Shown one piece after another: positions 1 to 22,054 of a stretch of 33,198 nt of DNA (the first letter of the stretch is position 1; each line of letters starts with the position of its first letter). The notes under the pieces were generated by a model. It searched no databases. It worked only from the letters and a program-made list of their open reading frames with translations, and had not been told where the DNA came from. Source of the DNA: Candidatus Aminicenantota bacterium (GTDB taxonomy: Bacteria; Acidobacteriota; Aminicenantia; Aminicenantales; Aminicenantaceae); the NCBI GenBank assembly GCA_030603565.1, contig JAUVXM010000026.1, forward strand, positions 1-33,198, in the 5' to 3' direction. The position numbers and the translations under genes are program-made.

Positions 1-117
1 TGGCGGTGTTTTTATTATTAATTTTTTTTCAGTGATATGCAAGATTCTTTTGAGAATGATTACTTTAACTATTTTCTCGTTTTTGTTTTTAATTTTAATC
101 GCCATTTTTTTACCATT

Positions 118-232
118 CAGGCGAGCCGATCTTACCGCATCTGCTTCGTTACAGGGCACTTGCGGTGAAGGACCACAGCTACACACCCTGTGCCTTGCAT
201 CTGCAGCAACCTCGACTCGTGAATAATCCAGG
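118..232 (-). repeat. B-module repeat, copy 1 (reverse orientation)
   Basis: This stretch is nearly identical to 316-430 and is related to 12042-12167, 20649-20932 and 26623-26740. Read on the minus strand it begins CCTGGATTATTCACGAGT, runs through a conserved hairpin-forming core and ends at GCTCGCCTGAA. The arms at 183-191 and 151-159 pair over nine positions on the minus strand if G-T pairs are allowed. Bases 1-117 look like the divergent A-type half of the same unit, cut by the window edge. No credible gene lies in 1-584; short open frames here are made of repeat sequence. Confidence 0.85.
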
Positions 233-237
233 TCCTC

Positions 238-430
238 CTGAATCATTCATAAAAATTGCCGCTGCTGTCTTCATAAAAACAAAAACTAATTTTATCAGCG
301 GTACTTTTTACCTTTCAGGCGAGCCGATCTTACCGCATCTGCTTCGTTACAGGGCACTTGCGGTGAAGGACCACAGCTACACACCCTGTGCCTCGTATCT
401 GCGGCAACCTCGACTCGTGAATAATCCAGG
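238..430 (-). repeat. A/B composite repeat, tandem to copy 1
   Basis: The unit starts with an A-type end at 238 (CCTGAATCATTCATAAAAAT) and finishes with a B-type end at 430 (GTGAATAATCCAGG). Bases 314-430 repeat 116-232 with only a few changes. The short gap 233-237 between the B end of copy 1 and the A end of this unit is the same B|A junction that recurs at 19221-19261, 20635-20675 and about 26607-26647. The units are therefore arranged head to tail. Confidence 0.8.
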
Positions 431-10530: not shown

Positions 10531-12042
10531 ATGCGAAATAAACGGCTTATACTTATTTTATTTTTTTTCACTTATTTATTTACTTCGACTTTTGGATTAT
10601 CACAGCGCCGATCCCAGGAGCTTTCAGATGAACAAAAGCTTCTCCAGATTGTGCATTCCATCCATAGTCAGACCCTATATGAATATGTAGATGAACTGGC
10701 TTCGGATAAATACTGGGGACGTTTGACAGGTACAGAAGGTTTCAACAAAGCAGCCGCATGGGTAATAAGTCATTTTAAAAAATGGGGAGTTGCTCCTGCA
10801 GACGAGAATAATACCTATCTTCAGTCCTTTTCCAATCCATACACTCTTGTCTTTAAAGACTGCTATGCCTATCTTCATGTTCCCTATAAGAATGGTACAA
10901 TAAAAAAAAATTATCGCTACGTAGATGAATTTATTCCCGGTTCGACATCAGGTTCAGGTGAGATTACGGCCGAGGTTATTTATATCGGTTATGGTATTAC
11001 AGCCCCGGAACTCGGCTTTGATGAATACAGCGGGCTGGATGTAGCCGGGAAAATAGTTTTAATGGAAAGAGAAGCGCCGGTTCCTTCCGGGAAAGCAGAG
11101 CTTTTTAAAAAGTGGCGCCCCTATTCTTTCCACCAGTACAAACTGGAAAATGCAGTCAAGCATGGAGCAAAAGGCATGCTTTATAATTATCCCATTACTA
11201 ATCCGAATAATTCCTATAGCAAAGGCTTCATATATTCTCATGTTGGACAGAGTGTGGTAGATGATCTTTTTACCGGAACCGGGAAAACCCATAAAGATGT
11301 GGTGGCAGATATCAGGAAAAATCTTAAACCCCGGTCTTTTTCAACCGGCAAGGTTTTTACTATCAAAAATACAACCGAACACTATCCAGACGGTACTGCT
11401 TATAATGTGGTTGGTAAAATAGAAGGCTCGGACCCGCAGCTTAAGGATGAGGTTATAATAATCGGCGGCCATCTCGACCACCTCGGCCGCTGTTATGAGA
11501 TCATGCCCGGGGCTAATGATAATGCCTCAGCAGTTGCGGTCATTATGGGCGTGGCTGAAGCACTTTCCAAAAGTCCGGTAAAGCCCCGCCGCACTATCCT
11601 GTTTATTTGTTTTGGGGCAGAAGAACAGGGAGTTGTGGGCTCAAAAATATATGTAGAAGATCCGCTTTTTCCCCTGGACAAGACAGTTTGCCTGATAAAC
11701 ATGGATGGAGTAGGTGCTGGGGATAAATTATCCGCTCTTGCTGCAGAAAACCATCCTGAGTTCTGGGAATTTTTCCGCAAGGCAAATGAAAAATATATTC
11801 ATAGGATCATACGTACATCTAAGTTTGTTAATAATGCCCGGCCTCGTCTGGATGCTGCCCGGTTTATGTGGGCTGGAGTCCCTTCCATCTCCTGGAGTGC
11901 CTTTGGTTCGACTTCATATTATCATGTCCCCCAGGACAATATTGAGATTATTACTCCTGAGATTATGGAGGACCTGGCCCAGCTTATGTTTTTAGCTGTT
12001 CTGGATATGGCAAATCAGGAATCTCTTGATTTTAGAAATTAA
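10531..12042 (+). CDS. Secreted M28-family zinc peptidase, paralogue 2
   Basis: The 503-residue protein has a signal peptide (about 1-24) and the same architecture as the M28 protein at 5697: a short N-lobe with YVDELASDKYWGRLTG, a PA-like insertion (TAEVIYIGYGITAPELGFDE) and the catalytic part. Metal and catalytic residues: GGHLDH, GANDNASA, FGAEEQGVVGS, INMDGVGAG and a late His in TSYYHVPQDN. All are intact, so activity is expected. It follows the barrel protein closely. The stop TAA (12040-12042) coincides with the TA target and first base of the B-type repeat, so the repeat lies exactly at the gene's end. Confidence 0.92.
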   Translation: MRNKRLILILFFFTYLFTSTFGLSQRRSQELSDEQKLLQIVHSIHSQTLYEYVDELASDKYWGRLTGTEGFNKAAAWVISHFKKWGVAPADENNTYLQSFSNPYTLVFKDCYAYLHVPYKNGTIKKNYRYVDEFIPGSTSGSGEITAEVIYIGYGITAPELGFDEYSGLDVAGKIVLMEREAPVPSGKAELFKKWRPYSFHQYKLENAVKHGAKGMLYNYPITNPNNSYSKGFIYSHVGQSVVDDLFTGTGKTHKDVVADIRKNLKPRSFSTGKVFTIKNTTEHYPDGTAYNVVGKIEGSDPQLKDEVIIIGGHLDHLGRCYEIMPGANDNASAVAVIMGVAEALSKSPVKPRRTILFICFGAEEQGVVGSKIYVEDPLFPLDKTVCLINMDGVGAGDKLSALAAENHPEFWEFFRKANEKYIHRIIRTSKFVNNARPRLDAARFMWAGVPSISWSAFGSTSYYHVPQDNIEIITPEIMEDLAQLMFLAVLDMANQESLDFRN

Positions 12043-12167
12043 CCTGGATTATTCACGAGTCGAGGTTGCCGTAGATGCTTTGTTGCAGCGGATTTGCGGT
12101 GAATTATCAAAGCTTCATCCCCTGCGCCTTGCATCGACGGCAACCTCGACTCGTGAATAGCTCAGGT
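12042..12167. repeat. Complete B-module repeat (126 bp) between convergent genes
   Basis: Both ends are type B: ACCTGGATTATTCACGAGTC at the left and CTCGTGAATAGCTCAGGT at the right, forming ~36-base imperfect inverted arms through GTAGATGC/GCATCGAC. An inner stem GCAGCGGAT (12085-12093) / ATCCCCTGC (12117-12125) pairs in 8 of 9 positions. It lies between convergent stops of the M28 and M48 genes and could act as a bidirectional terminator if transcribed; there is no U-run, so this is speculative. Confidence 0.85.
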
Positions 12168-19403: not shown

Positions 19404-20549
19404 ATGAAAAGGCGACCGTTTTGGATAGGGCAGATTAATCGAGCCTGGAAGAAACGCCCTATTGTTTGGCTTTCAGGTGTAAGAAGAGTTGGAAAAACAA
19501 CTCTTGCAAATATGTTCAGGGATGCAATTTATCTAAATTGTGATTTACCATCAACTGTCCGTTTGCTAAATGATCCTGAAGCGTTATATGATACTCTGGA
19601 TAAAAATGCTATTGTGATTTTTGATGAGATACATCGTGCTACGGATCCAAGTCGTCTCTTAAAAATTGCTGCAGATGTATATCCTCATCTAAGGATTTTA
19701 GCTACAGGTTCATCTACTTTAGCAGCAACGCAAAAATTTAAAGACAGCCTAACTGGTCGTAAATGCTTAATATATTTACCTCCTGTTATCTGGGATGAAT
19801 GTTTAGGAATATTCGGTATTAAAAATCTTGACCACCGCTTGTTACGGGGGGGGTTACCAGAACCTCTGCTTGCAAAAGAAAAAGATGCATCTTTTTTTTC
19901 AGAATGGGTGGACAGTTTTTATGCCCGTGATATCCAAGAGCTTTTTAACATTCGAAATCGAATCGGATTTATAAAATTGCTTCACTTATTATTGAGGCAG
20001 AGTGGTGGTCTTGTTGATTATTCAAATTTGGCTAAATTAAGCGACCTTAGCCGGCCTACTGTAAAGGCTCATATTGAAGCAATGTGTATAGCGCATGCGG
20101 TATTCCTTGTTCCTCCATTTCATGGCGGAGGGCGACGTGAGTTGACTCGCAGACCGAAATGTTATGGCTTTGATACTGGGTTTGTCACTTTTATTAAGGG
20201 GTGGAATAGTATTCGAGAGGATGATCGCGGAATTTTGTGGGAACACCTTGTACTTGATACATTGCGAACCTATAAGGACGAATCAAGCCTCTATTATTGG
20301 CGGGACAAATCCAGGAGAGAAATTGATTTTGTTATTAAAGAACAAGGAGAGCAAATACATGCTATTGAATGTAAAATCAATCCCGATCAATTCAGTCCGA
20401 ATTCTCTTTTTGCTTTCCGTTCATTATATCCCAAAGGAGACAATTATATCATCAGCCCTAGAGTAAAGATGACTTACAAACGAAAATATAAAGACTTAAC
20501 GCTTCAATATTCTTCCCTTATCAACTGTCCCCTTCTTCAACAGAATTAA
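19404..20549 (+). CDS. DUF4143-type AAA ATPase (AAA_14)
   Basis: The 381-residue protein has Walker A GVRRVGKTT (25-33) near the N-terminus and Walker B IVIFDEIHRA (about 70-80), a sensor-like ILATGSSTLAA, and the C-terminal DUF4143 part with SLYYWRDKSRREIDFVIKEQ, a nuclease-like D...E/K pattern followed by AIECK. The cellular role of this ATPase family is unclear; members are common, often lone genes near mobile or toxin-like DNA. The gene stands alone, with weak TAAGG before its ATG, and is bracketed by inverted B|A repeat junctions (19221-19261 and 20635-20675), which suggests transfer as a unit or repeated insertion around it. It lacks a signal peptide, so it is cytosolic. Confidence 0.9.
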   Translation: MKRRPFWIGQINRAWKKRPIVWLSGVRRVGKTTLANMFRDAIYLNCDLPSTVRLLNDPEALYDTLDKNAIVIFDEIHRATDPSRLLKIAADVYPHLRILATGSSTLAATQKFKDSLTGRKCLIYLPPVIWDECLGIFGIKNLDHRLLRGGLPEPLLAKEKDASFFSEWVDSFYARDIQELFNIRNRIGFIKLLHLLLRQSGGLVDYSNLAKLSDLSRPTVKAHIEAMCIAHAVFLVPPFHGGGRRELTRRPKCYGFDTGFVTFIKGWNSIREDDRGILWEHLVLDTLRTYKDESSLYYWRDKSRREIDFVIKEQGEQIHAIECKINPDQFSPNSLFAFRSLYPKGDNYIISPRVKMTYKRKYKDLTLQYSSLINCPLLQQN

Positions 20550-20648: not shown

Positions 20649-21066
20649 GACCTGGGTTATTCACGAGTCGAGGTTGCCGCAGATACGAGGCGCAGGGGGT
20701 GAAGCTGTGGTCCTTCACCGCGAATCCGCTGCAACAAAGTAGATCAGGCTGTGTCACAATTAATAAAATGGGAAATATTCAATAAAAATATCCCATTTTA
20801 TGGCAATATTGGAGTGAAATTAACATGTTTTGCCCTAGATTCTTCTGTTTTTTTGCCTGTTTATCCCGTTTTGAAATCTGACCGTGAATTATGACACAGC
20901 CTGAGATGCGGTAAGATCGGCTCGCCTGAAAGGTAAAAAATGTCGATTACAAATAGAGATTACATTGTAAACGAAATGGTAAATTGTCTAGCGGCAGCAA
21001 TCAATGTAGCATACTGATTTAAAAGGAAGCAACATAGATATCGACATTTTTTATGAATAATTCTGT
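20649..21066 (+). repeat. B-A composite repeat, interrupted by a MITE
   Basis: Type B starts at 20649 (ACCTGGGTTATTCACGAGTC), is interrupted at 20745-20903, resumes with GCGGTAAGATCGGCTCGCCT, and passes at GGTAAAAAATGTCGATT into a type-A half ending TTTTTTATGAATAATTCTG. The same B-to-A transition occurs at 26740-26760. Together with 20595-20647 it fills most of the 587-base gap between the ATPase and the next gene. I see no other gene there. Confidence 0.82.
20745..20903. mobile_element. 159-bp MITE with 17-bp inverted ends and AGAT target duplication
   Basis: Ends CAGGCTGTGTCACAATT and AATTATGACACAGCCTG are inverted repeats with one mismatch in 17. AGAT occurs directly on both sides (20741-20744 and 20904-20907). 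The uninterrupted repeat copies have a single AGAT at this place, which proves insertion. A subterminal hairpin TAAAATGGGA/TCCCATTTTA lies at about 20764-20800. It has no coding capacity, so it must be moved in trans by an IS not seen here. Confidence 0.85.
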
Positions 21067-21136: not shown

Positions 21137-22054
21137 ATGAAAAAAGCAGTTGTTTTATTTTTAACGGTCTTGCTGGTTTTTATCTTTTGTTCTGAACTAA
21201 AAGCTTCTTCTCTGCAAAAATCGATTGTTCCGGCTGAAGCATTGTGGGTAGTTCATGTTGATCTAATAAAGTTTAAAGCTTCTCGTTTGGGCGATATAGT
21301 TTTAAACGAGATCGATGCTCTGGGACTAAAGGATAAGATCGGCCGGTTTCAGAAACAATTCAAAATGGATCTCTTAAATGATATCGATGGAGTCACAGCA
21401 ATCGGATTAGGGAAAGATGAAAATGATATAGTTGTATGTCTTAAGGGGAATTTCAACAAGGACTACCTGCTTGGCCTTTTAGGAAAGGAAGATTCTCACC
21501 AGGAAATTCCTTATGGTAAATACACCCTCCATAATTGGGATAGTGATGAATTTGGTGCTTTTGTGGATGATGATCTTGTCCTTATCGCCCAGAATAAAAA
21601 TACTTTAATAAGAGTATTGGATGTCATTTCAGGAAAAAAAGCTGATATCTCTTCTTCTTCTCTTATGGAATACCTGAAAAAGGTTCCCTCTAATGCCTAT
21701 GTTTCAGCTATGGTAAAAGATATTTCCGCTATATCAGAAGAAGAAACTGATGTATTTGTCTTTAAAAAAATGAAATCTGCCCTCCTTACCCTCGCAGAGG
21801 TGAAGGAAAATCTTGACTTAAAACTCGATTTTATGGTTGATACTATAGAGGATGCGAACAATATTGAGAATGCTATCAAAGGGCTGATCGCATTAGCAAA
21901 CATGCATCTGTCAGATGAAGATTCAGAGTTGAGGATTCCAAAAGATATAGTAATATCAACCAAAAAAAACAAAGTCCAAATCGAATTGGTCTATCCAACT
22001 GATGATCTGGTTAATATCCTCTTAGGAAAGGTAAAAGGGAATTTATTTTTTTGA
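21137..22054 (+). CDS. Secreted protein of unknown function
   Basis: The 305-residue protein has a signal peptide (about 1-23, ending LKASS) and an all alpha/beta pattern with no catalytic motif. The N-terminal PAEALWVVHVDLIKFKASRL resembles proteins that sense or scaffold in the envelope, but I cannot name a family. AAGGAG before the ATG is good. It is 15 bases upstream of an ECF sigma gene and is followed by an anti-sigma gene, the mirror of the 3735-5498 operon where an unknown exported protein is last. It could be a signal partner of that sigma system. Confidence 0.7.
   Translation: MKKAVVLFLTVLLVFIFCSELKASSLQKSIVPAEALWVVHVDLIKFKASRLGDIVLNEIDALGLKDKIGRFQKQFKMDLLNDIDGVTAIGLGKDENDIVVCLKGNFNKDYLLGLLGKEDSHQEIPYGKYTLHNWDSDEFGAFVDDDLVLIAQNKNTLIRVLDVISGKKADISSSSLMEYLKKVPSNAYVSAMVKDISAISEEETDVFVFKKMKSALLTLAEVKENLDLKLDFMVDTIEDANNIENAIKGLIALANMHLSDEDSELRIPKDIVISTKKNKVQIELVYPTDDLVNILLGKVKGNLFF

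What the first reader, a model, noticed from the sequence alone, without database searches (positions are those of the whole stretch)
20745..20903. A 159-bp MITE inserted into a B repeat, with perfect AGAT duplication
This is a nested insertion that can be proven from the window itself: other B copies run uninterrupted through AGAT, while here AGAT is doubled around CAGGCTGTGTCA...TGACACAGCCTG. It splits the two strands of the B outer stem, so this copy should be defective if the stem matters. It gives relative ages: B-A first, then the MITE.
Basis: seen in the sequence. Interest (0 to 1): 0.55.

Follow-up and report, generated by a model that had tools for sequence, protein, structure and literature searches.

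The report
IS1182-type mini-transposon inside a palindromic repeat
A 159-bp non-coding mini-transposon sits inside one copy of a bacterial DNA repeat, a sister genome has the same spot empty, and both this mini-transposon and its likely parent insertion sequence land at one exact position of that repeat.

Summary
Window 20745-20903 is a 159-bp element with CAGGCTGTGTCA ends and a perfect AGAT duplication inside a B repeat. The orthologous locus of a same-genus genome (G002) has the B repeat uninterrupted: a clean 163-base difference, 159 + 4. The own genome has two more full copies (96-98%), G002 one (92%); all four sit at the same AGAT of a B repeat. Three contig ends carrying an insertion sequence with the same terminus, in two of which an IS1182-family transposase begins, sit there too. 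The genome has 186 B right arms. So this is not a random hit: an IS1182-type IS/MITE pair uses B as a fixed landing site, in both orientations. MITE relatives in other genera lie at ATT of other palindromic repeats. B is a covarying hairpin; the AGAT faces a second AGAT in an internal loop. Palindrome-targeting IS1182 members, REP-targeting IS and an IS1182-related MITE are in print; the combination, without target loss, is a new variant of a known kind. The transposase here is only partly assembled and nothing was tested for activity.

The parts
20745..20903 (+). 159-bp MITE, non-coding
   Evidence: copies; absent from the G002 orthologue
20745..20761 (+). left terminal repeat CAGGCTGTGTCACAATT
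   Evidence: the first 12 bases occur 7 times in the genome, reversed control 0
20887..20903 (-). right terminal repeat (reads CAGGCTGTGTCATAATT on the - strand; one mismatch to the left one)
20741..20744 (.). left copy of the duplicated target AGAT
20904..20907 (.). right copy of the duplicated target AGAT
20662..20744 (+). B hairpin, part left of the insertion (outer left arm, inner hairpin, AGAT)
20904..20924 (+). B hairpin, right arm AGATGCGGTAAGATCGGCTCG
20651..21066 (+). whole B-A unit holding the MITE (416 bases; 253 without the insertion and one AGAT)

Best explanation
The 159 bases are a non-autonomous element (MITE) moved in trans by an IS1182-family DDE transposase whose IS has the same 12-16 terminal bases. 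The transposase joins the element to target strands cut 4 bases apart at the AGAT in the 3' arm of a B repeat, in either orientation, and gap repair duplicates AGAT. B is a dispersed, structured, itself mobile-looking repeat that offers many intergenic landing places. Shown: element, duplication, empty orthologous site, further copies, the same site each time, both orientations, an IS with the same ends at the same site, a partial IS1182 transposase. Inferred: that this IS moves the MITE, the 4-base staggered cut, and that the transposase makes the target choice by reading B's sequence and/or hairpin.
For: Empty site in G002 with exactly one AGAT. Four of four full MITE copies (three in G000, one in G002) have AGAT on both sides in a B repeat. 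Seven of seven exact CAGGCTGTGTCA ends in the genome abut that AGAT or its complement. C21 and C99 run from the end into a transposase start: IS1182 model 69.7 bits for 94 aa (cut-off 270 is for the whole protein), DUF772 52 bits; the 71% identical full relative in G003 scores 396.3 bits. C46 reads a matching transposase C-terminus of about 19 residues (compared by eye). B right arm: 186 places, control 0.
Against: The middle of the IS is not assembled, so no complete IS or transposase is known from this genome. MITE and IS share only their ends. C46 and C99 may be two sides of one insertion. The C99 context has only about 21 bases of B arm. The searches are capped (40 of 52 candidates scored), and diverged copies outside B could be missed.
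Confidence: 0.85

Rival explanations
1. The MITE landed in a B repeat once, and other occupied copies arose by spread of the occupied B-A unit.
For: B-A units look mobile: at the G002 C5 locus the whole unit with its MITE (418 bases) is absent from the own genome. The two C138 copies lie within 500 bases and share a terminal variant.
Against: The MITE is in the same orientation relative to B in C73, C138a and G002 C5 but opposite in C138b; the B copies around them differ; the IS, with other contents, is at the same site; at C73 the orthologous B unit is present and empty in G002.
Confidence: 0.06
2. The MITE is moved by another, unassembled or lost IS with closer ends, not by the IS seen in C21/C46/C99.
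For: MITE and IS share only 12-16 terminal bases; MITE relatives with similar ends exist in other genera.
Against: No other element with the exact 12-base end exists in the assembly, and the IS uses the same target position.
Confidence: 0.2
3. Insertion is random and only copies in harmless repeats survive.
For: The sites read in G000 and G002 lie in intergenic repeats.
Against: Selection cannot explain the same base position in B each time: 186 right arms in 3.14 Mb, yet at least five insertions of the own genome are there; the AGAT of the left arm is used in 0 of 7 contexts.
Confidence: 0.02
4. IS1272-type replacement: the element replaces a hairpin and AGAT on both sides is coincidence.
For: IS1272 belongs to the IS1182 family and replaces hairpins without duplication (PMC5678879).
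Against: The G002 orthologue shows that nothing of B was lost and one AGAT was added; four of four full copies have the duplication.
Confidence: 0.01

Closest known systems
MITEPye1 of Paracoccus yeei, IS1182-related MITE (PMC11578231; passages read)
   Same: Non-coding MITE with IS1182-like terminal repeats and 4-base direct repeats, in intergenic regions
   Different: The passages read mention no fixed repeat as target; 1-3 copies per chromosome
IS1272 / TnSha1, IS1182 family (PMC5678879, abstract and passages; PMC4923244, passages)
   Same: IS1182-family transposase, palindromic targets, several insertions in one target and in both orientations reported
   Different: No primary sequence preference, no duplication, hairpin deleted; here a fixed position in one repeat, 4 bases duplicated, nothing lost
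REP-targeting insertion sequences with every copy at the same REP position (PMC1525189; passages)
   Same: Each copy at one position of a dispersed palindromic repeat
   Different: Reported there for IS3, IS110, IS4, IS256 and IS5 families; the word IS1182 does not occur in its main text; no MITE counterpart
IS1111 in QMITE2 of Coxiella (review PMC10969869; passages)
   Same: A mobile element landing in the palindrome of a MITE
   Different: Other IS family, and the lander is a full IS, not a MITE

Membership tests
MITE (non-autonomous IS derivative) | short, with terminal inverted repeats and target duplication | tested here: met
   159 bases, 17-base ends with one mismatch, AGAT duplicated
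MITE (non-autonomous IS derivative) | no transposase; several near-identical copies | tested here: met
   159 bases cannot code a transposase; 3 full copies in G000, 1 in G002
MITE (non-autonomous IS derivative) | an autonomous IS with matching ends | tested here: inconclusive
   ends match the IS in C21, C46, C99 over 12-16 bases, but no complete IS is assembled
MITE (non-autonomous IS derivative) | mobility | tested here: met
   present/empty orthologous site G000 against G002; current activity not tested
IS1182 family (the likely parent) | transposase matches the IS1182 model | tested here: inconclusive
   own 94-aa fragment 69.7 bits, under the whole-protein cut-off of 270; 71% identical full relative in G003 396.3 bits
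IS1182 family (the likely parent) | 4-base target duplication (MITEPye1: 4 bp; a palindromic 4-mer is recalled from general knowledge) | tested here: met
   AGAT in 4 of 4 full MITE copies; it is not a palindrome; relatives show 0 to 4 bases
IS1272-type hairpin replacement | no duplication, target hairpin deleted | tested here: not met
   one AGAT gained, no base of B lost
Type 1 REP-associated IS (Tobes and Pareja) | each copy at the same position of the repeat | tested here: met
   7 of 7 exact ends in G000 and the G002 copy
Type 1 REP-associated IS (Tobes and Pareja) | the target is a REP (20-40 bp palindrome, often GTAG or CGTC tagged; abstract of PMC3733652, tag part) | tested here: not met
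   B hairpin is about 100 bases in a unit of about 194 or 253 bases with its own end repeats

The most novel reading that the evidence does not exclude
The transposase chooses its target by structure. In the B hairpin the duplicated AGAT lies opposite a second AGAT, an internal loop of two G-A mismatches between conserved stems. In two more distant IS1182 copies the duplicated bases coincide with or overlap the loop of a perfect hairpin (L020, TC; L092, CGTA around loop GTA). IS1182-type elements and their MITEs would then duplicate an unpaired loop of a cruciform, and each lineage would adopt whichever hairpin-forming repeat its genome offers as a safe landing site.
Probability: 0.2. Interest if true: 0.6.

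Novelty: new variant of a known kind. Interest (0 to 1): 0.42.

Why it matters
It is a clean natural case in which one transposon type repeatedly uses a single base position of another dispersed, structured and itself mobile-looking repeat, with a sister genome carrying the empty site. If it holds, it extends fixed-position repeat targeting to the IS1182 family and to a MITE, in an uncultured lineage (G003 of the same family is the record Candidatus Aminicenantes CSMAG_2626). Because related elements in other genera lie in other repeats, it makes testable whether such a transposase follows the sequence or the hairpin of its target.

Tried and rejected
Considered and rejected: chance end repeats (copies; empty orthologue); ancestral part of B (three full copies against 186 B right arms); IS1272-type replacement (AGAT gained, nothing lost); loss of B folding by the insertion (all pairs kept in the fold). 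Tested and dropped: that the natural site is chosen to spare B's fold. With RNA parameters 34 of 97 positions keep all pairs and 77 of 97 (itself included) give equal or lower energy; with DNA parameters 59 and 45 of 97. Tested and not borne out as a general rule: that all targets are strong local hairpins. Of 14 insertions with both flanks, 4 exceed 95% of 920 control positions (G019 C180, L092, L085, L020), none of the four B sites does; and not all have a clear duplication (L086 none, L085 one base). The L092 duplication depends on where its right end is set. One search's automatic end search failed for several loci; ends were then set with a motif. A first MAFFT alignment of L107 with L123 was in the wrong orientation and is not used; BLAST replaced it. 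Rfam: no match in the window at gathering thresholds. Papers: of the 6 with both IS1182 and MITE I read passages of one. In one search, none of the 10 listed (of 1,574) mentions Aminicenantes.

Full report
What is there. Window 20745-20903 is a 159-base element beginning CAGGCTGTGTCACAATT and ending AATTATGACACAGCCTG, with AGAT on both sides (20741-20744, 20904-20907), inside a B repeat, between a DUF4143/AAA_14 gene (19404-20549) and a gene without a Pfam match (21137-22054). The window is contig C73 of a 149-contig, 3.14-Mb genome, G000. Same-family genome G003 is the record Candidatus Aminicenantes bacterium CSMAG_2626: its contig C105 and the record's contig have the same length, 17,433, and the transposase match at the same place. 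So the window very probably belongs to that lineage.

Proof of insertion. The downstream gene finds orthologues in both same-genus genomes searched, and in none of three other genera (five genomes). In G002 the locus carries the same B-A repeat without the element: one clean gap of 163 bases, 159 plus one AGAT, in near-identical sequence. In G001 the stretch read upstream of the gene has no B. Precise loss in G002 is not formally excluded.

Copies and their places. A DNA search of G000 gives three full copies: C73 and two in C138 (98% and 96%, 40 of 52 first-look candidates scored). In 38 genomes of the family one more full copy is in G002 (92%), with weaker relatives in G004, G012 and G019 (up to 22 candidates scored per genome). 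All four full copies have AGAT on both sides in a B repeat. The exact end CAGGCTGTGTCA occurs seven times in G000, reversed control 0, and seven of seven abut the same AGAT or its complement. The C99 context has only about 21 bases of B arm. Relative to B the MITE has one orientation in C73, C138a and G002, the other in C138b; the IS left end is in one orientation in C21 and the other in C99; C46 is a right end. C46 and C99 may be two sides of one insertion. I therefore count at least five insertions in G000 (three MITE, at least two IS) and one in G002. C133 begins exactly at AGATGCGG, as a contig broken at such an insertion would.

The B target. The arm AGATGCGGTAAGATCGGCTCG occurs 186 times in G000 (up to 3 mismatches), 43 in G001, 117 in G002, 32 in G003, and 0 to 21 in the other six genomes asked; the reversed control gave 0 except 1 in G014. 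By my own rough arithmetic, 186 positions in 3.14 Mb make five random hits there practically impossible. An alignment of 53 distinct uninterrupted B copies (a subset of the 186) gives a 30-pair consensus hairpin; 10 of 30 pairs have at least one double change that keeps the pair, some many (columns 24/80: GC 25, AU 17; 31/72: GC 30, AU 19). The copies are related, so these are not independent events, and the covariation energy term is small (-1.83 of -29.85 kcal/mol). The AGAT used (columns 81-84) faces a second AGAT (columns 20-23): the outer A and T bases pair, the inner G and A bases form two G-A mismatches. 48 of 53 copies have both. Insertions are in the right one in 7 of 7 contexts (C73, C138a, C138b, C21, C46, C99, G002 C5), which speaks for sequence context as well as structure.

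Effect on B. Folding the occupied repeat keeps B's stems, with the MITE as an extra branch closed by its own ends (an empty copy). In a control with the MITE placed at 97 positions, 34 keep all pairs (RNA parameters). So 'this copy must be defective' is not supported, and the natural site is not special in this respect.

The parent. C21 and C99 continue from the shared end into a transposase start (94 aa on C99, 91% identical on C21). The fragment matches the IS1182 model (69.7 bits; the 270 cut-off is for the whole protein) and DUF772; a 71% identical full relative in G003 scores 396.3 bits. C46 ends in what reads as the last 19 or so residues of such a protein (compared by eye). The middle is not assembled.

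Relatives use other repeats. Two MITE relatives in G019 and one in G004, each 158 bases, and the 1.7-kb IS of G003 have ATT duplicated. The two G019 sites match the repeat ATTGCGAGGAGCGAAGCGACGTGGCAATC (0 and 3 mismatches, listed); those of G004 and G003 are shorter variants of it by eye, outside the pattern. That pattern has 14, 4 and 18 places in G019, G004 and G003, 33 in G011, 22 in G014, and none in G000, G001, G002, G012 or G025. In G012, of seven weak matches I read six flanks: four share one flank type and two another, by eye. Of 22 transposase relatives in named genomes, three contig-end copies in one Omnitrophica genome all follow ...ACATT, and two share 22 bases at 95%. In two more distant copies the duplicated bases coincide with or overlap the loop of a perfect hairpin (L020, L092), but by a simple hairpin score only 4 of 14 insertions exceed 95% of 920 control positions, none of them a B site, and two of the 14 have no clear duplication. 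So palindromic repeats are frequent targets, but no common structural rule is established.

Comparison. IS1272 and TnSha1 of the IS1182 family replace hairpins without duplication (PMC5678879, abstract and passages; PMC4923244, passages); both papers cite Siguier and colleagues for palindrome targeting by some IS1182 members, a review I did not read. REP-targeting IS with every copy at one position are reported for five other families (PMC1525189, passages). A MITE with IS1182-like ends and 4-bp repeats is MITEPye1 (PMC11578231, passages). An IS landing in a MITE's palindrome is reported for Coxiella (review PMC10969869, passages). No paper joining IS1182, a MITE and a fixed repeat target was evident in the listings of searches, which cover open-licence papers only and list a part of the hits.

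Verdict. It is an ordinary transposition product with an unusual regularity: one fixed landing position in a structured, itself mobile-looking repeat. New variant of a known kind.

Noticed in passing
L107:1338-1755 (G002) against L123:1365-1366 (own genome, C99): A whole A-B unit with its MITE (418 bases) is present in G002 and absent at the orthologous place of the own genome, with TTAG beside both ends by eye: the B-A unit itself looks mobile.
   Followed up: partly
B-A units in fetched loci of the own genome, e.g. window 20651-21066: Of 56 units found, most are about 194 or 253 bases, with end repeats CCTGRATTATTCA; 11 of 56 have identical 4-base flanks (TTAA, TTAG, CTAA, CTAT and others) against a mean of 2.2 and maximum of 7 in 2000 shuffles. 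What moves them is unknown.
   Followed up: partly
B hairpin, alignment A2 (53 copies): The B repeat forms a long hairpin with compensatory changes in 10 of 30 pairs and two facing conserved AGAT strands.
   Followed up: yes
window 12041-12166: A rearranged B copy whose two ends are both the left arm in inverted orientation (43 bases, 86% complementary).
   Followed up: no
window 107-430; also C120, C137, C46: B-A units in head-to-tail arrays with a spacing of about 197-198 bases.
   Followed up: no
L101, L102, L103 (Omnitrophica CG1_02_40_15): Three contigs end in IS1182-type copies, all preceded by ...ACATT, two sharing 22 bases: possibly another fixed repeat target.
   Followed up: partly
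G012 loci L108, L111, L114, L116, L118, L119: Partial MITE relatives with flanks of two recurring types, four and two of six: possibly again a repeat as target.
   Followed up: partly
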